Of a stretch of DNA of 35,634 nucleotides, positions 4,939-35,634 are shown piece after piece. Below the pieces are notes generated by a model that did no database searches, had not been told where the DNA came from, and saw nothing but the letters and a program-made list of their open reading frames with translations. The stretch lies in assembly GCF_000287675.1 (NCBI RefSeq), contig NZ_ALJL01000007.1:1-35634 (forward strand), given 5' to 3'. Origin of the DNA: Lachnoanaerobaculum sp. ICM7 (GTDB lineage: Bacteria; Bacillota; Clostridia; Lachnospirales; Lachnospiraceae). A program made the translations under genes and the position numbers. Numbering within the stretch: position 1 is the first letter of the stretch; every line of letters starts with the position of its first letter.

Positions 4939-5844
4939 ATGGCTACATTACAAAGAGTAAATAAGAAAGGCAAAAAAGAATACAGTGACAATCTTGCGGG
5001 ATTTATAATGTCGTCACCGGCTATAATTCTTTTGGTTGCCTTTTTGATAATTCCTATAATATATACTATATACTACTCATTTTTCACATATCAGGTGGTG
5101 CGTCCGGACAATATAAAATTCAATGCAATAGGTAACTATGTAAAGCTGTTTCATGATGAGAACTTCTATGTGGCATTGAAAAATACGGTATATTTTACTG
5201 TAATCGTTGTGCCGGTACAGTGTACATTGGCATTGGTACTTGCACTGATGGTATCAAGTAAGAAAAAAGGTGTAGCTATATTTAGAACACTTTATTACAG
5301 TCCTCAGATAACTTCAATGGTAATTATCGCTGTACTCTGGACAATTCTTTATAATTCCAATGCCAATACAGGACTTATAAATGCCTTTCTAAAGAGTATA
5401 GGTATGCAGCCTATTGATTTTTTAAATAATCCGAAGACTGCCATGAATTCAATAATATTTATGTCGGCATGGCAGGGTGCAGGTTATCAGATGATGATCT
5501 TTATTGCAGGATTAAATGCAATACCTACAGAGCAGTATGAAGCCGCAAGTGTGGACGGAGCAGACTGGTTTGCAAAACTTATATATGTGACTATACCGGG
5601 ACTTATAAATACAATTAAGTATGTACTTATGATAACACTGATACAGGCTATGAAGCTCTTTACCCAGCCGTATATTATGACAAAGGGCGGACCGAGAAAT
5701 GCAACAAAAACACTGGTTTTCTATATCTATGAACAGGGCTTTCAGAAAGGAAACTTCGGTTATGCCTGCAGTATAGCCACAGTATTCTTCATTATAGTTG
5801 TTGCATTGTCAATTATAGTTAAAAAGATAAGCAAGACAAATTAG
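4939..5844 (+). CDS. Sugar ABC transporter permease, MalF/MsmF type
   Basis: This is a 301-residue inner-membrane permease with about six hydrophobic segments, beginning with IMSSPAIILLVAFLIIPIIY after a short basic N-terminus. The ABC-coupling EAA loop is visible as EQYEAASVDGADWFAKLIYV followed by TIPGL. The family pairs with a second permease and a cytoplasmic ATPase. The second permease is the next gene, but no ATPase is encoded in this window, so a shared MsmK-like ATPase elsewhere is likely. The start is ATG 4939 after AAAGGATG. It is co-transcribed with its neighbours. Confidence 0.93.
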   Translation: MATLQRVNKKGKKEYSDNLAGFIMSSPAIILLVAFLIIPIIYTIYYSFFTYQVVRPDNIKFNAIGNYVKLFHDENFYVALKNTVYFTVIVVPVQCTLALVLALMVSSKKKGVAIFRTLYYSPQITSMVIIAVLWTILYNSNANTGLINAFLKSIGMQPIDFLNNPKTAMNSIIFMSAWQGAGYQMMIFIAGLNAIPTEQYEAASVDGADWFAKLIYVTIPGLINTIKYVLMITLIQAMKLFTQPYIMTKGGPRNATKTLVFYIYEQGFQKGNFGYACSIATVFFIIVVALSIIVKKISKTN

Positions 5845-5852
5845 GAGGGATT

Positions 5853-6698
5853 ATGAATAATAAGAAGATAAATAAAGTGCTTGGTAATGTTATTTTTTAT
5901 CTTGGAAATATTATAGTAGGTCTTATATTTGTATCTCCACTTTTGTGGATGCTTGCTTCATCGTTTAAGCCTGAACTTGAGATATTTTCAAATCTGAACT
6001 CATTGTCTACATTTATTCCGAAGAACTTTACTTTGGCGAATTATGTGGAAGTATTTCAAAGAATAAAAGTATTTACCATATTAAAAAATACATTGATCTA
6101 TATAGGCATTGTACTTATAGGTGATTTGCTTTTAGGATCTATGTTCGGTTACTCACTTGCTAAGATGAAATACAGATTCAGAGGAATAAGTCTTACCATT
6201 GTAATAGCACTCATGTCAATGCCTGTAGAGGCAATAATTTTACCATTATACATAGAAATGGCTCAGTTAAACTGGGTGAACACAATGCTCGGACTTACAA
6301 TTCCTTTTATGATGAACTGTTTTTCAATTTACATGTTCTATTCATATTTTATAGGAATTCCCGATGAGCTTATAGAAGCCGCCAAGGTGGACGGTTGCGG
6401 GCCTATAAGAACATATTTTAAAATAATTATGCCGATTTCAAAGACTGTTTTTGCAACGGTACTTATACTTGATTTCGTATCAAGATGGAATGACTTTATG
6501 TGGCCTTTCCTTATAACTACAGGAGAAGAAAAGAGAACGGTACAGCTTGCGGTACAGATATTTGTAGGAGTAAGCCCTATACATTACGGTGTTATTATGG
6601 CGGTTCTTACATTGGCATCCATACCTATGATACTTATGTATATATTTATGCAAAAATTCTACGTAGAAGGTATTGCATCTACAGGAATAAAAGGTTAG
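5853..6698 (+). CDS. Sugar ABC transporter permease, MalG/MsmG type
   Basis: This is a 281-residue membrane protein with about six transmembrane segments and the family EAA motif IEAAKVDGCGPIRTYFKIIM. It also has the typical LLWMLASSFKPELEIF loop after the first helix and the DFMWPFLIT motif near the end. It forms the translocation pore with the preceding permease. Only 8 nt separate the two genes, with TAGGAGGG as the ribosome binding site overlapping the upstream stop. Length and motif order are standard for carbohydrate importers of the CUT1 class. Confidence 0.93.
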   Translation: MNNKKINKVLGNVIFYLGNIIVGLIFVSPLLWMLASSFKPELEIFSNLNSLSTFIPKNFTLANYVEVFQRIKVFTILKNTLIYIGIVLIGDLLLGSMFGYSLAKMKYRFRGISLTIVIALMSMPVEAIILPLYIEMAQLNWVNTMLGLTIPFMMNCFSIYMFYSYFIGIPDELIEAAKVDGCGPIRTYFKIIMPISKTVFATVLILDFVSRWNDFMWPFLITTGEEKRTVQLAVQIFVGVSPIHYGVIMAVLTLASIPMILMYIFMQKFYVEGIASTGIKG

Positions 6699-11518: not shown

Positions 11519-12925
11519 ATGAATATATTTGATGAAGTAGATGAAAATCTGTTCAGACCTCTGACAGGTACAAATAAAAGAAAGTATGTAGATATTCTTG
11601 CTCTTATTTGGGAAAAGTGCAAGCGAATGCCTATGTATGCTATAGAAAAAAGTACAATATTTGATATGGCGGAGGAATATCTCCTGGGACTTGATGAGAA
11701 GGTTGAACCGGATATGGAAGAGCAGGAATATACAAGCGGAAATATAGCAGATATGAGGACTATTTCCGGAAGCTTTATAAGAAGACTTAGAGATACAGGC
11801 TGGCTTTTGGAAAAGCCGGGTGAATATGAGGATGAGGATAATCTGGCAATTCATTATAAGGTAGTGCCTATATTGAAATCCTTTCAGGAAATTATCAGTC
11901 CCACTATCATCACTTATAAGGGAAAGCTTTTTAAAATATATTCTATGTTTGAACATATATCGGAACAAGGCAGCCCTTATGAAGGAGTTTTAAAAGAAGC
12001 TTCTGAGGATTTTGACAATCTTAATCAAGCTCTCAGAACATTGGCGGCATCTATTGAAGACCATATAAATGATCTGACATTGGGAAAAAGTCCTGAAGAA
12101 ATATTGGATTTTTTTGAGAAATATGAAGAAAAGATAGTTGTGGGATCATATCATAGATTTAAGACAAATGATAATTTGTTTTATTATAGAAGCAGTTTGT
12201 ATGAGAGTCTTGACAGATGTGAAGATAATCTTTTCGATGCTTTGGTACTTGATTATATGGATACAGAGCGTGTTGAAAGGGATGAGGCAGGTGTAAAAAT
12301 AAAAGAGCTTATACAAAAGCTTCGTATGGATATCGAGGAAATGGAAGCTATAATGCGAACCATTGATGACAGGCATATTTTATATAGAACCAGGGCGGTG
12401 CAAAGAGCACAATTTTTGCTCCTGTCTGACGGAAGCAGTAAGAGTAAAATCAATAATATACTTAAGTTTTACGCAAGTCAGATAAATAGTAAAGAGGATG
12501 TATATGATGAAGATGACAGCATAGCATCCGATATTTTTCAGATATTCGTACAAAACTTCTTTGACTGTAACTCTCTTTCCACGCCTGTTAAAAAGCGTAA
12601 GCCTACTGCTATTGAATTTGTGGATATTATTGAGGAACTGGACCAAGATATTATAGATGAGAAAAATCGAAAGATGATGGAATATATAAAAAATGCATTG
12701 ACATCTGAAAATGTTAACAGATTTGCAAGAGATATATTAAATGAAAATCATGCGGTGCAAATAAGTTCAGTATTTGAAAATGATCCGGATACTTTAATAA
12801 AAATAATAGGTCTGTATACTTATTCCAAGACTTCAGAAAGAGAGTATGATATAAGGCTTAGAGATAATGTGGTGGAGTCAAACGGTGTGAGGTTCAAAGA
12901 TTTTATTGTTGAGGAAAGAAGGTAA
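11519..12925 (+). CDS. jetA: Wadjet defence protein JetA
   Basis: This is a 468-residue soluble protein, the JetA (kleisin-like, MukF-related) subunit of a Wadjet plasmid-restriction complex. It begins MNIFDEVDENLFRPLTG, the typical JetA opening, and has a winged-helix-like N-terminal half (FIRRLRDTGWLLEKPGEYED) and a long helical middle. The assignment rests on this sequence and on the ordered jetB-jetC-jetD neighbours. It most resembles the Firmicutes type II form (DUF5716-like). There is no clear ribosome binding site. The ATG lies 1 nt after the kinase stop, which implies coupling. Its stop overlaps the jetB start (TAATG). In the family, JetABC is an SMC-type motor that extrudes loops on small circular DNA, which JetD then cuts. 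Confidence 0.85.
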   Translation: MNIFDEVDENLFRPLTGTNKRKYVDILALIWEKCKRMPMYAIEKSTIFDMAEEYLLGLDEKVEPDMEEQEYTSGNIADMRTISGSFIRRLRDTGWLLEKPGEYEDEDNLAIHYKVVPILKSFQEIISPTIITYKGKLFKIYSMFEHISEQGSPYEGVLKEASEDFDNLNQALRTLAASIEDHINDLTLGKSPEEILDFFEKYEEKIVVGSYHRFKTNDNLFYYRSSLYESLDRCEDNLFDALVLDYMDTERVERDEAGVKIKELIQKLRMDIEEMEAIMRTIDDRHILYRTRAVQRAQFLLLSDGSSKSKINNILKFYASQINSKEDVYDEDDSIASDIFQIFVQNFFDCNSLSTPVKKRKPTAIEFVDIIEELDQDIIDEKNRKMMEYIKNALTSENVNRFARDILNENHAVQISSVFENDPDTLIKIIGLYTYSKTSEREYDIRLRDNVVESNGVRFKDFIVEERR

Positions 12926-13500
12926 TGGCAACAGATATAAAAGAAGAGATAGCTAATTATTTATTGAATAACTGTTTTCTTATGGGAACAGTGGATACTA
13001 CAAGAGAGAAGTATTACTATGTTATAAACCATGAAGAAAGTTTCAGACAGATCTTCTTGCCTATTGGATATACTTTGGTCATTCATAGAAATTTGAGAGT
13101 TGTTCAGCTTATAAATAATCATGGCAGCGGAAGAATTGCATTAAGGAAATATGAGAGTATTATCTTGCTTATTTTCAGGCTTTTATATGTGGAAAAGAGA
13201 GAAAGTTTATCTACAAATGAAGACAGAATTTATGCTACAGTTGAGGAAATTAAAAATGAATATGAGAAGCTGAATTTGCCAAGAAAATTTGACAGAGCTT
13301 TTTTAGAGGATTCCATAAGAAATATAAAAAGATATAATTTGGTACAGGTAGCAGATAAATTAGTTGATATGGATGCGAGAATACAGATCTATCCTTCTGT
13401 TATGCTTGCAATGCCTGATTCCAATATTTCAAAAGCATATGATGAAACTGTTAAGTTGCTTTCTCAATACGAAAATTCTGAAGAGGAGGATGAAGAATGA
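12925..13500 (+). CDS. jetB: Wadjet defence protein JetB (DUF4194)
   Basis: This is a 191-residue protein matching the JetB/MukE-like subunit. It has an N-terminal helix-rich start (EIANYLLNNCFLMG), then IALRKYESIILLIFRLLYVE and a winged-helix-like region with RAFLEDSIRNIKRYNLVQVA. In Wadjet complexes it binds JetA and bridges the JetC motor. The size fits the family. The start shares one base with the jetA stop, and the end overlaps the jetC start by 4 nt (ATGA), so the three genes are translated as a coupled set. The acidic C-terminus (NSEEEDEE) is unremarkable. Confidence 0.85.
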   Translation: MATDIKEEIANYLLNNCFLMGTVDTTREKYYYVINHEESFRQIFLPIGYTLVIHRNLRVVQLINNHGSGRIALRKYESIILLIFRLLYVEKRESLSTNEDRIYATVEEIKNEYEKLNLPRKFDRAFLEDSIRNIKRYNLVQVADKLVDMDARIQIYPSVMLAMPDSNISKAYDETVKLLSQYENSEEEDEE

Positions 13501-16500
13501 TAAGGATGACAAGACTTCATCTGATAAATTGGCATAATTTCCAAGATGATATTATAGATTTCAAAAATATCACATATCTTTTGGGCGTAAATGCAGTAGG
13601 AAAGACAACTATAATGGATGCGATCAGGTATTGCCTTACCACAAACAAGGACTTCAATACTGCCGGAAATAAAAAGAGCGGCAGAACTCTTTTAGGTTCG
13701 GTCCACCAAAAACAGAGAGCGGAGGACAGTTATCTTCGTCCGGGGCATACAGTTTCCTATATAGGCATTGAATTTTTGGATGAGGCTATTAAAAAGACAT
13801 TTGTAATAATTGCACGTGTGGAATCGGAAACTCCAAAGCAGGATCTTAGGGGAGTATATCAGGATTGGTATATTACAAAGCCGGGATACAGCCTTTTGGA
13901 TATTCCTTTTTTTGTAAAGAACAAAGATGGAAAAAGTCCTGCTTCAAGAGAAGCTTTTAAGCTTGATAATAAGGGGATGGACAGGGCTTCAAATCAGGCT
14001 GACGCAAGAAGAAAGATTTGTCGTATGCTTGGTATAGGGGAGGCGGATTCGCCTATCGGAAAGAAGTTTAATGAAGTATTCCATATGGGTACAAGTCTGG
14101 AGGATATAAAGGATATAAGAGAGTTCATTTATACTTATATTCTGCCGGAACCGGAGGTGAATATTGACTTTTTGCAAAAGGATATGATTGAGCTGGAAAG
14201 GCTACAGGAGATACTTCAGGAGGCATCTGACAGAGAGGCTTTATTAAAGGAGATAAATGAAAAAATAAAGAATGCAAGAGAACTTTTGGTTAAGGTGAAA
14301 ATAAATGAGATATTGGTTACCTACGCAAATCTTCAAGGAAATATAGAAGAAACTAATGAAAGAAAATATCTTATTGGTGAATGGGAAGTAAGTTTATCTT
14401 TGTTTGAGGAAAAACTTACAGAGCTTTCAGGTAGAGAATCAAAGGCCTCAGAACTCTTATATGAAGCGCAAAGAGCAGCTGAAAATAATGCTGAAAATAA
14501 GGAGATGCTCTCTCTTGAGAGTGAAAATAAAAATAATAAAGTTGAAGAGAAAAGACTTACAGAAGAAGCGGCAAAGTTTGATAATGTGGCTAAAGACTTA
14601 TTTGAATTAAAGGATAAATTAAATAAGCTTGGATTTATTTTTGATATAGATAATTGCATAAGAGATGAAAATTGCTTTGAAGAAACAAAGATTGCAGAGA
14701 TAAAAAGAATTGCCAAGATTTTTGCAGATATGGAAGAACAAATAAAAAATCATGATGCAAAAATAAGGACTGATATAGCGAAGCTAAATGAGGAAGGCAA
14801 TGGACTTTCAAGTAAAATAAAATCCCTTGAGTCAGGTGTGATGTGTTATCCCAAAGAAGCAATATTTGTCAGAGACAAGATAAATGAGGCCTTGAGTGAA
14901 CAAAGCAAGAAGGCGGATGCCAGACTTTTGTGTGAGCTCTTATATATGACAGACAGGAGCTGGCAGGATGCAGTGGAAAGCTACTTAAATACACAGAGAT
15001 TTAATATAATTGTAGAACCTGATAATTATATTTTGGCAAAGAAAGTTTTTATCTCTTTGGGAGATAAGGTCAACGGTATAGGACTTATAGATACAAGAAA
15101 AATAAAGAATGTAGAATATAAGACTGAGAAGGAATCTTATCTGGGTGATAAGATTGAATCTGAAAATATATATGCCAAGGCGTATGCAAGGTTTGTGATG
15201 AAAGATGTTATCTGCTGTGAAAATTCAGATGATTTGGAGAAATTTTCAAAGAGTGTTACAAAAGACAGACTTAGATTTCAAAGTTTTTGCTTACAGAGAA
15301 TGGCAAAAAGAGAACATTTTATCGGTGTGGATGCCATTGAAAAGCAGTTAAAAGCTGCAAAAAAAGAACTTGTGGATATACAAAACAGCTTGAAAGAGCT
15401 TGAAGATGCAAAGAAAAGCTTTGACTTGGTATATAACGGATATACAAAGTTTAGAGCCGGAGATGGCTTTAGTAAGCTTGAAATGTATTGTGAATCTAAG
15501 AAAAGAGCAAAGGAGCTTGGAATAAAGATAGCTGATATAGCTAAGAAGATAGAAGAGTTTAAGCAAAATCCAATATTGCTCGCAATGTATGACAGAGTCA
15601 AGGAATGCAAAAAGAATGTAAATGATATCAGAGATGAGATAACGGATATTAAGGCAAAAAAGCAAAATATCAGTGACAATATAAGAAAATCAAATCTGCT
15701 TATAGAAGAGCTTGAAAAGAATTTTGTGGAGCTTAAAATTGTGTATGAAAACAGTATAAAAGGATATTCGGAGTTTGCACTTGATGTGGAAAAGAAATAT
15801 TTGAATGAAAGAAAGTCTAAAAAATCTTCTGCTATTGCATATAATTTTTCAAATCGTATGGCACAGGATAATATAGCATTAAACAGCTATTTAAATCAGG
15901 AATTGGTACCTTTACAACAAAAGTATACCGCCACATACACTTGTGATTATGCGATAGGCTTGGAAGGGGCAAATCGGTGCATGCAAGAATATCTTACTCT
16001 GCAAAATATTGAGCTGGAAAGACATAAGAATGAACTTGCACAGGCTCAGATTCGCTGTAAGGACAGATTTCGCAAGGAAGTGCTGTTTAGGATGAAGGAC
16101 GATATCTTAAGGGCAAGGCAGCAGTTTAAGCAAATAAATCGTGTTATGGAAAATCTGGAATATGGTGAGGAAAGCTATAGATTCGGAATTGACAAGAGCA
16201 AAGATAAGGAACTGGGACTTTTCTACGATATTATTATGGATAAGGACAATCAGCAAATTGACAGAGAAAATGATATGCTTGCATATATGGCTGAGGTAAA
16301 TAAGTCCGAGGTATTTGAAAGTCAGATTGATGACTTTATGAGTAGAATAATGATAGATGTGGAAGAGCATGCAAAACAAAATCTCACAGGTCAAAAGTCA
16401 AAGGCAAAGAGTATGGGAATGTATGTGGATTATAGAACTTATCTGGACTATGATATTATTATAAAAAATTCAGTGACAGAGAAGGAAGTTGCATTATCAA

Positions 16501-16826
16501 AGGTAAGCGGCGAGGGCAGCGGTGGAGAAAATCAAGCTCCGTTTTATGTAGCAATATGTTCTTCACTTTTGCAAATTTATGAGCAAAGTAAGGAAGAGTC
16601 TATGAGGCTCATATTGTTGGATGAGGCATTTAACAATATGACCAGCGACAGAATCGAGCCTATGATGAACATGTTTAAGAAGTTGAATTTGCAACTGGTG
16701 CTTATAGCTACAGCCGAGAAGGCTACATCAATTTTACCATATTGCGATATTACCTACTCAATAGTTAAATCCGGAAACAGAAATGCAATACGAGCTTTCG
16801 AGAGGTTGGAGGATGGATTACGGTAA
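13497..16826 (+). CDS. jetC: Wadjet SMC-like ATPase JetC
   Basis: This is a 1109-residue SMC/MukB-like ATPase. Walker A is GVNAVGKTT at residues 30-38. Long coiled-coil arms rich in Glu and Lys flank a central hinge-like region with a cysteine pair (KDVICCENSDDLEKFS). The C-terminal head has the ABC signature SKVSGEGSGGENQ, and Walker B is LILLDEAFNNM. It would form the loop-extruding motor that recognises small circular DNA such as plasmids. The last 27 nt, including the stop, are part of a 33-bp direct repeat whose second copy carries the start of jetD. The ancestral jetC stop therefore probably overlapped jetD by 14 nt. The reading frame is intact. Confidence 0.92.
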   Translation: MIRMTRLHLINWHNFQDDIIDFKNITYLLGVNAVGKTTIMDAIRYCLTTNKDFNTAGNKKSGRTLLGSVHQKQRAEDSYLRPGHTVSYIGIEFLDEAIKKTFVIIARVESETPKQDLRGVYQDWYITKPGYSLLDIPFFVKNKDGKSPASREAFKLDNKGMDRASNQADARRKICRMLGIGEADSPIGKKFNEVFHMGTSLEDIKDIREFIYTYILPEPEVNIDFLQKDMIELERLQEILQEASDREALLKEINEKIKNARELLVKVKINEILVTYANLQGNIEETNERKYLIGEWEVSLSLFEEKLTELSGRESKASELLYEAQRAAENNAENKEMLSLESENKNNKVEEKRLTEEAAKFDNVAKDLFELKDKLNKLGFIFDIDNCIRDENCFEETKIAEIKRIAKIFADMEEQIKNHDAKIRTDIAKLNEEGNGLSSKIKSLESGVMCYPKEAIFVRDKINEALSEQSKKADARLLCELLYMTDRSWQDAVESYLNTQRFNIIVEPDNYILAKKVFISLGDKVNGIGLIDTRKIKNVEYKTEKESYLGDKIESENIYAKAYARFVMKDVICCENSDDLEKFSKSVTKDRLRFQSFCLQRMAKREHFIGVDAIEKQLKAAKKELVDIQNSLKELEDAKKSFDLVYNGYTKFRAGDGFSKLEMYCESKKRAKELGIKIADIAKKIEEFKQNPILLAMYDRVKECKKNVNDIRDEITDIKAKKQNISDNIRKSNLLIEELEKNFVELKIVYENSIKGYSEFALDVEKKYLNERKSKKSSAIAYNFSNRMAQDNIALNSYLNQELVPLQQKYTATYTCDYAIGLEGANRCMQEYLTLQNIELERHKNELAQAQIRCKDRFRKEVLFRMKDDILRARQQFKQINRVMENLEYGEESYRFGIDKSKDKELGLFYDIIMDKDNQQIDRENDMLAYMAEVNKSEVFESQIDDFMSRIMIDVEEHAKQNLTGQKSKAKSMGMYVDYRTYLDYDIIIKNSVTEKEVALSKVSGEGSGGENQAPFYVAICSSLLQIYEQSKEESMRLILLDEAFNNMTSDRIEPMMNMFKKLNLQLVLIATAEKATSILPYCDITYSIVKSGNRNAIRAFERLEDGLR

Positions 16827-16832
16827 GGATAT
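16800..16832 (+). repeat. Left copy of a 33-bp perfect direct repeat
   Basis: Bases 16800-16832 are identical to 17179-17211 (offset 379), starting gagaggttggaggatggatt and ending aaggatat. The flanking bases differ on both sides (c/t before, a/t after). This copy holds the jetC end plus a decoy jetD start: ATG 16813 opens an 11-codon frame ending at 16845. Confidence 0.97.
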
Positions 16833-16841
16833 AAGTTGTTA

Positions 16842-16871
16842 TTGACTTTATGTTTATAAATAGATTATAAT
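16842..16871 (+). promoter_or_regulatory. Promoter of the antitoxin small RNA
   Basis: TTGACT (16842-16847) and a perfect TATAAT (16866-16871) have an 18-bp spacer. Transcription is expected from about 16878. It lies immediately inside the left 33-bp repeat. Confidence 0.8.
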
Positions 16872-16877
16872 TTATTA

Positions 16878-16953
16878 CAGCTAAGAAAAGATATGGTATC
16901 TCATGTAGATACAAAACGAACCCCTAGTAGTTGCAGCTATTAGGGGTTCTTCT
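16878..16953 (+). ncRNA. Putative type I antitoxin small RNA (par RNA II-like)
   Basis: A predicted transcript of about 75 nt runs from the promoter above to the hairpin terminator. It contains taagaaaagatatg (16882-16895) and tcatgtaga (16901-16909). The same two blocks recur at 17055-17068 and 17076-17084, on the strand opposite the toxin mRNA, and the second block covers the toxin AUG. The RNA can therefore pair with the toxin message in trans over its start codon and early codons. It is also antisense to the toxin message through the shared terminator. Pairing by direct repeats plus a shared terminator is how the Fst/par antitoxin RNA II works. The exact ends are estimates. Confidence 0.75.
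16918..16953. terminator. Bidirectional terminator shared by toxin mRNA and antitoxin RNA
   Basis: gaacccctagtag (16918-16930) pairs with ctattaggggttc (16937-16949), with one G-U pair and the loop ttgcag. A ttcttct tail follows on the + strand and gttttgt on the - strand. It could end transcripts arriving from either side, including read-through from jetC. Confidence 0.85.
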
Positions 16954-16983
16954 CATATTATACGGTTTGAGTATCCGTTCAGG

Positions 16984-17079
16984 CTAGTTGTCGCTATGAT
17001 CTCTGTCTAACCATTTACAAATGTAGTAGCTGGCTACATTTGCCGCTACAGAGATAAGAAAAGATATGATCTCTATCAT
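16984..17079 (-). CDS. 31-residue hydrophobic type I toxin-like peptide
   Basis: This gene is too short for ordinary gene calling. Reading from ATG at 17079 on the minus strand, the peptide is MIEIISFLISVAANVASYYI followed by CKWLDRDHSDN and a TAG. It has one hydrophobic helix (about residues 3-20) and a short charged, polar tail, the form of Fst/Ldr-type membrane toxins and of many small unannotated peptides in Firmicutes. The Shine-Dalgarno GGGGG (17087-17091 on the minus strand) is well placed. A TATAAT promoter lies upstream, and an antisense RNA covers the start codon. It probably depolarises or disturbs the membrane if made in excess; that role is inferred from form and context. It reads toward jetC, opposite to all neighbouring genes. 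Confidence 0.82.
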   Translation of the reverse strand: MIEIISFLISVAANVASYYICKWLDRDHSDN

Positions 17080-17084
17080 GTAGA

Positions 17085-17112
17085 CACCCCCTTTCTGCTG
17101 TCAGATTGGGTG
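17085..17112 (-). promoter_or_regulatory. 5' hairpin that can mask the toxin Shine-Dalgarno
   Basis: On the toxin mRNA, caccc (from 17112-17108) can pair with gggtg (17089-17085). This encloses the G-run used as the Shine-Dalgarno, with an 18-nt loop that also has pairing potential. In the Fst system a similar 5' stem keeps toxin translation low. Only five base pairs are certain here. Confidence 0.55.
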
Positions 17113-17125
17113 CGACAACAATATT

Positions 17126-17153
17126 ATTATACTTTGTTTAAAATATAATACAA
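17126..17153 (-). promoter_or_regulatory. Promoter of the toxin mRNA (minus strand)
   Basis: Read on the minus strand, TTGTAT (17153-17148) and a perfect TATAAT (17131-17126) have a 16-bp spacer. The message would start near 17119 and reach the shared terminator near 16912, about 205-210 nt. That is close to the known length of the par toxin RNA. Confidence 0.7.
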
Positions 17154-17178
17154 CAATAAGTCATATAATTGATAATGT

Positions 17179-17211
17179 GAGAGGTTGGAGGATGGATTAC
17201 GGTAAGGATAT
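17179..17211 (+). repeat. Right copy of the 33-bp perfect direct repeat
   Basis: This is identical to 16800-16832. It supplies the ribosome binding region (gaggttggagg) and the first codons of jetD, so the insert did not damage the gene. Confidence 0.97.
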
Positions 17212-18403
17212 TTTAAATAGTTTAGTGGATATGTATGAAAGAAGAGAGGGCTATATAAAAGAGCCTTCTTCTTTGCGTGCAATACAAATAGATATAAAAA
17301 AGAATTATCCGGCATATGCAGACAGATACAATCATAATGCGTATAAGGATATAAATTCAGCTATAGAAAAGTTGATAAGTGAAGATGTGATAATATCAAA
17401 ACTTGAATCAACAGGCAGCTATAGTAAGGTCAGATTAAATATTGACAGAATAGCAGATTGCTATAAAAAATTAAACAGAAAAAGTATTCCGGAGCAATGT
17501 GAATATATAAAACAAATTTTGTCCTCATTTGCGGACAGTAAGTATAGGCTGCTGAATAATATAATATCCGATTGGATGAATCTGGCTGTAAACTATAGGA
17601 AGCTGCCATATGATTTAAAGTATGACGGTAAAAGATTAAAAGACATACTTACAATATTGGAAGCTGTATTTAAGATAGAGCAGGAAAGTTATATCAGAAA
17701 TTTCTCAACTGCCGTATTTAAAGATTCAAAGAGATTTCAAAAGGAATTTAAGTCCTGTATAGAGAGTATATTATTTGATTATACGGATGATCCTATAGAG
17801 AAGGATAAGATACTTGAATATTATAATTTGTATGAGAATCCTACATATGTATATATAAAGGGAGATGTGATAATAAGTTTTGAAAATTCTACAATATATG
17901 CTAGCGAGTTACCGGATGGAATAGCTCTCTCCAATGCTTCGCTTAAAAGGATAAAAAATATAAAGGTACTTACAAAAGCTGTTATTACAGTGGAAAATCT
18001 GACTACATACCACGATGAAAATAAGAAAGAAGCGGTATATATCTATCTTGGAGGATACCACAATAAATCAAAGAAAGAATTACTTGAAAAAATATATAAA
18101 GATAATAAATCTTGTGAATATCTACATGAAGGGGATATAGATATCTACGGATTTTTGATACTTGAAAACTTAAAAGAGAAAACAGGTATACCGTTTAGGC
18201 CTCTCCTTATGGATGTAAATACATTGAAAAGATTTTATGAGGCGGGAATATACAAGGAACTTAATGTATCGGATATCAGAATGATTGAGAAAAACAGAGA
18301 AAATCTTAAAGAGTATTCAGAGGTATTGGATTTTATGCTTTTAAATAATTGTAAGGTGGAGCAGGAGTCATTAAGGGCTGTACGATTACTTGAAAACAGT
18401 TAG
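17192..18403 (+). CDS. jetD: Wadjet nuclease JetD (Toprim-type)
   Basis: This is a 403-residue protein. The start is ATG 17192 (MDYGKDILNSLVDMYERREG, the typical JetD opening); the in-frame GTG at 17177 adds only residues upstream of the ribosome binding site. The N-terminal half is winged-helix-like and helical. The C-terminal half is a Toprim nuclease fold (DUF2220): TVENLTTYHDEN contains the catalytic glutamate, then IYLGGYHN and LHEGDIDIYGFLIL give the acidic DxD metal site. JetD cuts the DNA circle after JetABC stalls on it. All key motifs are intact, so the system looks functional. A toxin-antitoxin cassette separates it from jetC, and its transcription must read through the cassette's terminator or come from inside the cassette. 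Confidence 0.92.
   Translation: MDYGKDILNSLVDMYERREGYIKEPSSLRAIQIDIKKNYPAYADRYNHNAYKDINSAIEKLISEDVIISKLESTGSYSKVRLNIDRIADCYKKLNRKSIPEQCEYIKQILSSFADSKYRLLNNIISDWMNLAVNYRKLPYDLKYDGKRLKDILTILEAVFKIEQESYIRNFSTAVFKDSKRFQKEFKSCIESILFDYTDDPIEKDKILEYYNLYENPTYVYIKGDVIISFENSTIYASELPDGIALSNASLKRIKNIKVLTKAVITVENLTTYHDENKKEAVYIYLGGYHNKSKKELLEKIYKDNKSCEYLHEGDIDIYGFLILENLKEKTGIPFRPLLMDVNTLKRFYEAGIYKELNVSDIRMIEKNRENLKEYSEVLDFMLLNNCKVEQESLRAVRLLENS

Positions 18404-35453: not shown

Positions 35454-35634
<181 letters not shown>

What the first reader, a model, noticed from the sequence alone, without database searches (positions are those of the whole stretch)
16800..17211. A small cassette inserted at the jetC/jetD junction of a Wadjet system, flanked by a 33-bp perfect direct repeat
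Bases 16800-16832 and 17179-17211 are identical. The repeat contains the end of jetC and the ribosome binding site plus start of jetD, so removing one copy and the insert gives a normal jetC-jetD overlap of 14 nt. This points to an insertion that left both genes whole. No transposase or terminal inverted repeat is seen, and 33 bp is long for a target duplication, so the mechanism is open. A left-over decoy jetD start (ATG 16813, 11 codons) is a fossil of the event.
Basis: partly seen in the sequence, partly recalled or inferred. Interest (0 to 1): 0.9.

Follow-up and report, generated by a model that had tools for sequence, protein, structure and literature searches.

The report
Toxin-antitoxin cassette inserted inside Wadjet operon
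A tiny, apparently self-contained toxin-antitoxin module of about 350 bases has inserted between two overlapping genes of a bacterial anti-plasmid defence operon, and because 33 bases of the target were duplicated on either side, both defence genes stayed whole.

Summary
16800-16832 and 17179-17211 are identical (33 bp), and the 346 bp between them are an insertion. Lachnoanaerobaculum orale and L. saburreum, and one distant metagenome genome, carry an empty site with the 14-nt jetC/jetD overlap. L. gingivalis carries the same filled site.

It looks like a complete, promoter-to-promoter type I toxin-antitoxin module built like par/Fst: a 31-aa membrane-type peptide on the minus strand, a convergent antitoxin RNA, a shared hairpin, and a direct repeat giving antisense pairing over the toxin start codon. 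Relatives of the peptide were matched in 90 of 299 genomes of the family (two of them these jet copies, E 0.05), and on small plasmids and phage contigs.

Two other single modules are flanked by long exact repeats of unrelated sequence (35 and 23 bp). Most modules show none, and the excess over control sites is marginal. Ends vary and no terminal inverted repeat was found. I favour capture of a module-bearing fragment at a staggered break, kept by its own addiction. Mechanism of insertion, toxicity and any role in Wadjet are unproven.

The parts
11519..12925 (+). jetA of a type I Wadjet operon
   Evidence: PADLOC JetA1, E 8e-256
12925..13500 (+). jetB
   Evidence: PADLOC JetB1, E 3e-74
13497..16826 (+). 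jetC; its last codons and stop lie in the left repeat
   Evidence: PADLOC JetC1, E 0; ORF
16800..16832 (+). left copy of the 33-bp target duplication (end of jetC, decoy jetD start at 16813)
   Evidence: single copy in L069 and L070
16833..17178 (+). 346-bp insert: par/Fst-like type I toxin-antitoxin module
   Evidence: 96% identical copy (341 of 346 bases matched) at the same site in L. gingivalis; no insert in L069, L070, no toxin match there
16842..16871 (+). antitoxin promoter-like site TTGACT-18-TATAAT
   Evidence: 11 of 12 consensus matches (the number of such sites in the region, 5, is not above chance, 3.7)
16878..16960 (+). predicted antitoxin RNA (approximate ends)
   Evidence: MFE -29.8 kcal/mol, z -4.9
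16879..16912 (+). antitoxin copy of the internal direct repeat (complementary to the toxin mRNA start)
   Evidence: repeats D5 and D12; cassette-wide test
16918..16949 (.). palindromic hairpin lying in both predicted transcripts, terminator-like
   Evidence: 14-bp stem; inverted repeat I1; the simple terminator scan flagged none
16984..17079 (-). toxin ORF, 31 aa, MIEIISFLISVAANVASYYICKWLDRDHSDN
   Evidence: ORF; relatives
16987..16994 (-). GCGACAAC at the ORF end, complementary to the toxin mRNA 5' end (17112-17119)
   Evidence: sequence; paired in the minimum-energy fold, not in the centroid
17052..17087 (-). toxin copy of the internal direct repeat, over the start codon
   Evidence: repeats D5 and D12
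17085..17094 (-). toxin Shine-Dalgarno AAAGGGGGTG
   Evidence: sequence
17126..17153 (-). toxin promoter-like site: -10 TATAAT (17131-17126), weak -35 TTGTAT (17153-17148), spacer 16
   Evidence: sequence; not flagged by the scan
17179..17211 (+). right copy of the 33-bp target duplication (SD and start of jetD)
17192..18403 (+). jetD
   Evidence: PADLOC JetD1, E 1e-160

Best explanation
A roughly 350-bp type I toxin-antitoxin module of par/Fst design, of a kind widespread in Lachnospiraceae and present on small plasmids, inserted into the jetC/jetD overlap, most likely once, in an ancestor of the window species and L. gingivalis. The event duplicated 33 bp of target, enough to give jetC its stop and jetD its ribosome site and start, so both genes survived. 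Shown from sequence: the insertion, the duplication, the module's anatomy, and the upkeep of both jet genes between the two species. Inferred: the peptide is a toxin kept silent by the antisense RNA pairing over its start codon and at the hairpin; losing the module would release the toxin message, so the module keeps itself in place. Least certain: it arrived without a transposase of its own, as a DNA fragment captured at a staggered break whose single-stranded ends were filled in; in the Wadjet operon it is mainly a selfish passenger.
For: Empty sites in two congeners and filled sites in two species. Module anatomy: ORF, promoter-like sites, repeats, hairpin. Across 201 related cassettes with enough flank a copy of the toxin start region lies downstream in 174 (4 of 201 with another cassette's downstream region), a perfect hairpin stem of 8 or more in 129 (3 shuffled), an SD in 181 (no control), 5' end/ORF end complementarity of 7 or more in 115 (25 shuffled). 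Own toxin/antitoxin pairs match at score 10 or more in 212 of 251, random pairs in 92 of 3931. Between the window and L. gingivalis the toxin start changes ATG to GTG (17079) and the antitoxin repeat changes at the matching base (16904), so pairing is kept. Insert 4.0% diverged, jetC 4.8%, jetD 6.5%. Peptide relatives in 90 of 299 family genomes at E 0.05, 76 of 392 order genomes at E 0.001 (the samples overlap and include both jet copies), and on small plasmids. Long exact flank repeats of other sequence at L067 (35 bp) and L118 (23 bp, core 347 bp). Within genera, DNA matches between similar cassettes often stop at the cassette or keep one flank only.
Against: Most cassettes show no long flank repeat: 18 of 236 testable score 20 or more and 11 of those 18 are in tandem loci; 0 of 16 testable phage-contig copies score even 10. 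Counting only the three clean single-cassette events against 344 control sites in the same loci (highest 21) the excess is marginal, about 5% by hand estimate; a second control (left flank of one cassette, right of another) gave 2 of 1438 at 21, the rest at most 14. Both 33-bp copies carry the same change between species at 16821-16822 and 17200-17201, and both differ at 16811 and 17190, which needs gene conversion or two insertions; conversion could also explain the paired change at 17079 and 16904. OBRC5-5 lost the site with most of jet, so any addiction is not absolute, if it ever had the module. Toxicity and transcription are untested. The toxin -35 is poor and the hairpin lacks a good T run.
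Confidence: 0.72

Rival explanations
1. The cassette is a non-autonomous transposable element (MITE-like) moved in trans by an unidentified transposase or integrase that makes long target duplications.
For: Long exact duplications of unrelated sequence flank three single cassettes: 33, 35 and 23 bp. By eye the junctions show no microhomology. Cores of 346 bp (window), 351 bp (L. gingivalis) and 347 bp (L118) are nearly equal.
Against: No terminal inverted repeat in the insert. By eye the ends differ in sequence, and the L067 insert is 502 bp. Only one copy in the window genome. Long duplications are rare among 236 cassettes.
Confidence: 0.25
2. The module was recruited by Wadjet: it makes loss of the operon costly (guard or addiction), or it regulates JetD through its promoter and hairpin placed ahead of jetD.
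For: Retained in two species although 33-bp repeats would be expected to delete it (inference). The antitoxin promoter points towards jetD, with a hairpin between. Type I modules beside CRISPR arrays in C. difficile are reported (PMC6563280, passages read). Two neighbours of other cassettes match defence families well (PDC-S03 E 2e-44, QatD E 3e-21).
Against: In 43 fetched jet loci (some of them the same place twice) the toxin was found only in the 4 that are the window or L. gingivalis, apart from one E 0.87 match. Among 99 proteins beside other cassettes 14 PADLOC families matched at E 1e-8, each in 1 member (no baseline was run). OBRC5-5 lost jet.
Confidence: 0.15
3. Anti-addiction: the chromosomal antitoxin lets the cell survive when Wadjet destroys plasmids that carry a related toxin.
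For: Relatives lie on small plasmids, one from an oral Mogibacterium (64.5% identity), whose toxin start reaches score 10 with the window antitoxin. Wadjet acts on plasmids (established knowledge).
Against: Pairing is mostly specific: the window antitoxin reaches score 10 or more with 13 of 253 foreign toxins, best 11, against 14 for its own.
Confidence: 0.07
4. Two independent insertions at the same point in the window species and in L. gingivalis.
For: Each species' two repeat copies share the local bases at 16821-16822 / 17200-17201.
Against: Identical end points and 96% identical inserts; insert divergence is close to that of jetC.
Confidence: 0.08

Closest known systems
par of pAD1 and the Fst/Ldr type I toxin-antitoxin family (PMC7472228: abstract, passages, sections 4 and 7 read)
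   Same: Convergent toxin and antitoxin genes, shared hairpin, direct repeats over the toxin start codon, complementarity between the toxin mRNA 5' end and its ORF end, short membrane-type peptide with a tryptophan before a charged tail.
   Different: The window toxin does not match the curated Fst model and has SVAAN instead of the P/D/S/TxxxG motif. It sits as a bare insert inside a defence operon with a 33-bp target duplication; the review text holds no hit for 'insertion', 'transpos' or 'duplicat'.
C. difficile type I modules beside CRISPR arrays (PMC6563280, passages read)
   Same: Small convergent type I modules next to a defence system in Clostridia; 18 of 25 members of the window toxin's family match the NCBIfam model CD_typeI_toxin at E 0.5 or better, best 2.7e-4.
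   Different: The defence system is Wadjet, the module lies inside the operon, and the window copy itself did not match that model.
fst-Sm/srSm of Streptococcus mutans (PMC3543317, passages read)
   Same: A chromosomal module in a 318-nt intergenic region, repeats over the start codon.
   Different: No insertion history described in the passages read.
Insertion sequences and MITEs
   Same: Direct target duplication flanking a short insert.
   Different: No terminal inverted repeat, no fixed ends seen, longer duplication than most (typical lengths recalled, not tested).

Membership tests
par/Fst type I toxin-antitoxin (Fst/Ldr) | convergent promoters | tested here: inconclusive
   Antitoxin site 11/12; toxin -10 TATAAT but weak -35, not flagged; promoter-like sites in the region are not above chance in number
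par/Fst type I toxin-antitoxin (Fst/Ldr) | direct repeats overlapping the toxin start, read by both RNAs | tested here: met
   (D5, D12); 174 of 201 cassettes against 4 in the control
par/Fst type I toxin-antitoxin (Fst/Ldr) | bidirectional intrinsic terminator | tested here: inconclusive
   14-bp hairpin but poor T runs; the scan found none
par/Fst type I toxin-antitoxin (Fst/Ldr) | toxin mRNA 5' end and SD sequestered by intramolecular pairing | tested here: inconclusive
   Minimum-energy fold pairs GUUGUCGC with GCGACAAC and part of the SD (z -2.3), but the centroid pairs the 5' end otherwise; 115 of 201 cassettes show the complementarity, 25 shuffled
par/Fst type I toxin-antitoxin (Fst/Ldr) | tryptophan between membrane helix and charged tail | tested here: met
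   ICKWLDRDHSDN after a hydrophobic stretch (by eye, no helix prediction run); a W is present in 206 of 213 peptides
par/Fst type I toxin-antitoxin (Fst/Ldr) | P/D/S/TxxxG motif (majority feature in the review, not universal) | tested here: not met
   Window has SVAAN and no glycine; 73 of 213 peptides have the motif
par/Fst type I toxin-antitoxin (Fst/Ldr) | match to curated models (NF033608 Fst; Pfam Ldr) | tested here: not met
   Window: no match; family: 1 of 25 each, E 0.016 and 0.048
par/Fst type I toxin-antitoxin (Fst/Ldr) | peptide toxic, antitoxin RNA protects | not testable with these tools
   needs bench work
Wadjet type I (JetABCD) | jetA-jetB-jetC-jetD in order, whole | tested here: met
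   PADLOC JetA1, B1, C1, D1 over nearly their full length
transposon or MITE | target duplication | tested here: met
transposon or MITE | terminal inverted repeats | tested here: not met
   None of 12 nt or more; shorter ones not tested
transposon or MITE | several copies with the same ends | tested here: not met
   One copy in the genome; ends differ by eye among the few cassettes whose ends are known

The most novel reading that the evidence does not exclude
Bare type I toxin-antitoxin modules of about 350 bp are themselves mobile units: they enter new sites with long (23-35 bp or more) target duplications, without a transposase or fixed ends, held in place by their own addiction, and in doing so can settle inside the gene overlaps of defence operons without breaking them.
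Probability: 0.3. Interest if true: 0.8.

Novelty: new variant of a known kind. Interest (0 to 1): 0.55.

Why it matters
How minimal toxin-antitoxin modules, which carry no mobility genes, spread through chromosomes is to my knowledge little explained. Here one event is caught with its empty site, exact ends and duplication, inside a gene overlap where only an insertion duplicating about 27 bp or more (from the jetD ribosome site at 16800 to the jetC stop at 16826) could leave both genes whole. That makes the question testable: look for more empty/filled pairs and measure their duplications. It also places a type I module inside an anti-plasmid defence operon, where its promoter and hairpin separate the nuclease gene jetD from jetABC.

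Tried and rejected
Chance repeat: rejected (E about 2e-13; empty sites). Rfam: nothing at the insert at gathering thresholds. Larger flank-repeat list: L233 rejected as a target duplication because its motif recurs at several other places in 8 kb; L222 ambiguous (tandem 347-bp units, 82% alike, 51 bp exact); L126 ambiguous because the repeat includes the antitoxin promoter; L332's repeat (34 bp exact) looks low in complexity, like a dispersed element (my judgement, not tested); L281 a 130-bp imperfect repeat, not resolved; L231, L241, L159, L185, L162 are tandem loci, not resolved. Empty sites for L118 and L067: none found, genera too small (2 and 1 genomes searched). Phage contigs: 0 long repeats in 16 testable. 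Defence linkage of other cassettes: 14 PADLOC families, each in 1 of 99 neighbours; these 99 were picked by hand from 148 listed, which stopped after 95 loci; most of those left out are short or overlap the cassette, a few of 150-190 aa were left out too, and no baseline was run. PHROGs on the same 99: 72 families at E 1e-10, integrases among them. Solved structures: no relative (only match an antibody chain at E 1.5). A codon count of jetD was out of frame; one search gives the correct one (42 synonymous, 28 non-synonymous of 403). Papers: ten searches listed no paper that I recognised, from titles and abstract starts of the rows shown, as describing a type I module in a Wadjet operon or with target duplications; only open-licence papers are held.

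Full report
Observation. The 33-bp perfect repeat is at the stated coordinates, with 346 bp between the copies. jetC ends at 16826 in the left copy, and jetD starts at 17192 in the right copy; the left copy keeps a dead start at 16813. The operon is Wadjet type I, all four genes whole. The insert is single-copy in its genome.

Empty site. A scan of named genomes with JetD gave 12 loci. L. orale (L069) and L. saburreum (L070), about 70% and 68% identical in JetD, have one copy of the junction and a 14-nt overlap. A Lachnospiraceae metagenome genome (L075, 55%) also has a 14-nt overlap and no insert. L. gingivalis (L068, the same place as G001) has the insert at the same point, 96% identical. 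The other distant relatives (L071-L074, L076-L078) lack the insert and have other spacings (no toxin there). L. sp. OBRC5-5 (L079) keeps only fragments of jet and no insert.

What the insert is. On the minus strand lies a 31-aa ORF with a strong ribosome site. On the plus strand a near-consensus promoter-like site faces it. A 14-bp hairpin lies between. A 23-nt segment at the toxin start recurs at 87% beyond the hairpin, and a 12-nt one at 92%, so that the plus-strand RNA can pair over the toxin start. In the minimum-energy fold the toxin mRNA 5' end GUUGUCGC pairs with GCGACAAC at the ORF end; the centroid fold differs. These are the features that the Fst/Ldr review gives for par of pAD1 (PMC7472228; abstract, passages and sections 4 and 7 read).

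A large family. Matches to the peptide were found in 90 of 299 family genomes at E 0.05, 76 of 392 order genomes at E 0.001 and, with a consensus-like query, 18 of 391 class genomes at E 1e-4; the three samples overlap and include the window genome. On plasmids there are 263 records at E 10, many of them weak; the better ones include small plasmids of Mogibacterium, Waltera, Mediterraneibacter, Aerococcus and uncultured bacteria, and one weak Megamonas match (E 5) is annotated as Fst family toxin. Of 201 cassettes with enough flank, 174 repeat the toxin start downstream against 4 in the control, and pairing is mostly specific to the cassette (212 of 251 own pairs, 92 of 3931 random pairs). At E 0.5 the curated Fst model matches 1 of 25 members and the C. 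difficile type I model 18 of 25 (best 2.7e-4); the window copy matches neither. So it works like par/Fst on paper, and membership is not proven by models.

Selection after insertion. Between the two filled species the insert differs at 14 of 346 aligned bases (plus 5 inserted), jetC at 4.8% and jetD at 6.5%. Changed codons: jetC 105 synonymous and 40 not, of 1101; jetD 42 and 28, of 403. Both genes look maintained. The toxin start base and its partner in the antitoxin repeat changed together (17079 and 16904), keeping complementarity; gene conversion between the repeats could do the same. The outer 33-bp copies also share two changed bases and both differ at a third place, which suggests conversion or, less likely, two insertions.

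Is long duplication a habit of the family? Among 236 testable cassettes, 18 have a flank repeat scoring 20 or more. Of these, 7 are single-cassette loci: the window and L. gingivalis (one event), L067 (35 bp exact, the last codons and stop of a neighbouring ORF), L118 (23 bp exact, core 347 bp), and L126, L281 and L332 (ambiguous or unresolved). Eleven are in tandem loci; the best of these, L080, repeats the last codons of a ppdK-like gene (my naming from the translation, no family search) with 5 mismatches in 40. Controls: 2 of 344 sites in the same loci score 14 or more, highest 21 (run on the first 202 testable cassettes' loci); mismatched flank pairs, 2 of 1438 at 21 and the rest at most 14 (a slightly different score). 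Three clean events against none above 21 gives a chance of about 5% by hand estimate, so the family-wide claim is suggestive only. Phage-contig copies gave 0 of 16.

Ends and mechanism. By eye the ends do not agree in sequence between cassettes, and insert length runs from 346 to 502 bp. In L118 the insert ends in a 26-bp exact copy of the 3' end of a trmB-like gene 1.2 kb away (the gene name is my reading of the translation). This fits capture of DNA pieces, or an earlier stay of the cassette at that gene, better than a transposon with fixed ends. At jetC/jetD only a duplication of about 27 bp or more leaves both genes whole, so the length seen there is partly survivorship. In genus g153 three close copies (L040, L142, L261) share one flank but not the other in two of the pairs, and in g207 several DNA matches of 76-85% are confined to the cassette, so modules do seem to move.

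Role in Wadjet. Nothing tested shows recruitment. Of 43 fetched jet loci only the 4 that are the window or L. gingivalis hold the toxin (one further match at E 0.87). Among 99 proteins beside other cassettes 14 PADLOC families matched, each once, two of them strongly (PDC-S03, QatD), without a baseline. The insertion puts a promoter and a hairpin ahead of jetD, so a change of JetD level is plausible but untested. The anti-addiction idea is weak, because the window antitoxin reaches score 10 or more with only 13 of 253 foreign toxins, though one of these is the Mogibacterium plasmid's.

Noticed in passing
L079 (Lachnoanaerobaculum sp. OBRC5-5), about 5640-6200: Wadjet remnant: short pieces of jetA, the end of jetC and jetD remain, separated by internal deletions.
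   Followed up: partly
L118 / L254 2600-2625 and 3815-3840: The antitoxin-side end of the insert is a 26-bp exact copy of a trmB-like 3' end 1.2 kb away.
   Followed up: partly
L241 736-1600: Four type I cassettes in tandem, about 275 bp apart, two of them 89% alike.
   Followed up: no
L256 (e.g. 1596-1616, 3614, 3986, 4355, 5828): Operator-like palindrome CCGAATTTCGG recurs near a gene for an XRE-like regulator (my reading of the translation).
   Followed up: no
L281 -334 and +308 from the toxin start: A 130-bp imperfect direct repeat flanks a single cassette.
   Followed up: no
L062 1491-1800: The 3' part of the toxin gene and the region after it are repeated 223 bp downstream.
   Followed up: no
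window 35454-35634: The window ends inside the start of a 16S rRNA gene (Rfam match cut off at 3').
   Followed up: no
window 18007-18079: A 25-nt imperfect direct repeat (80%) inside jetD, spacing 48.
   Followed up: no
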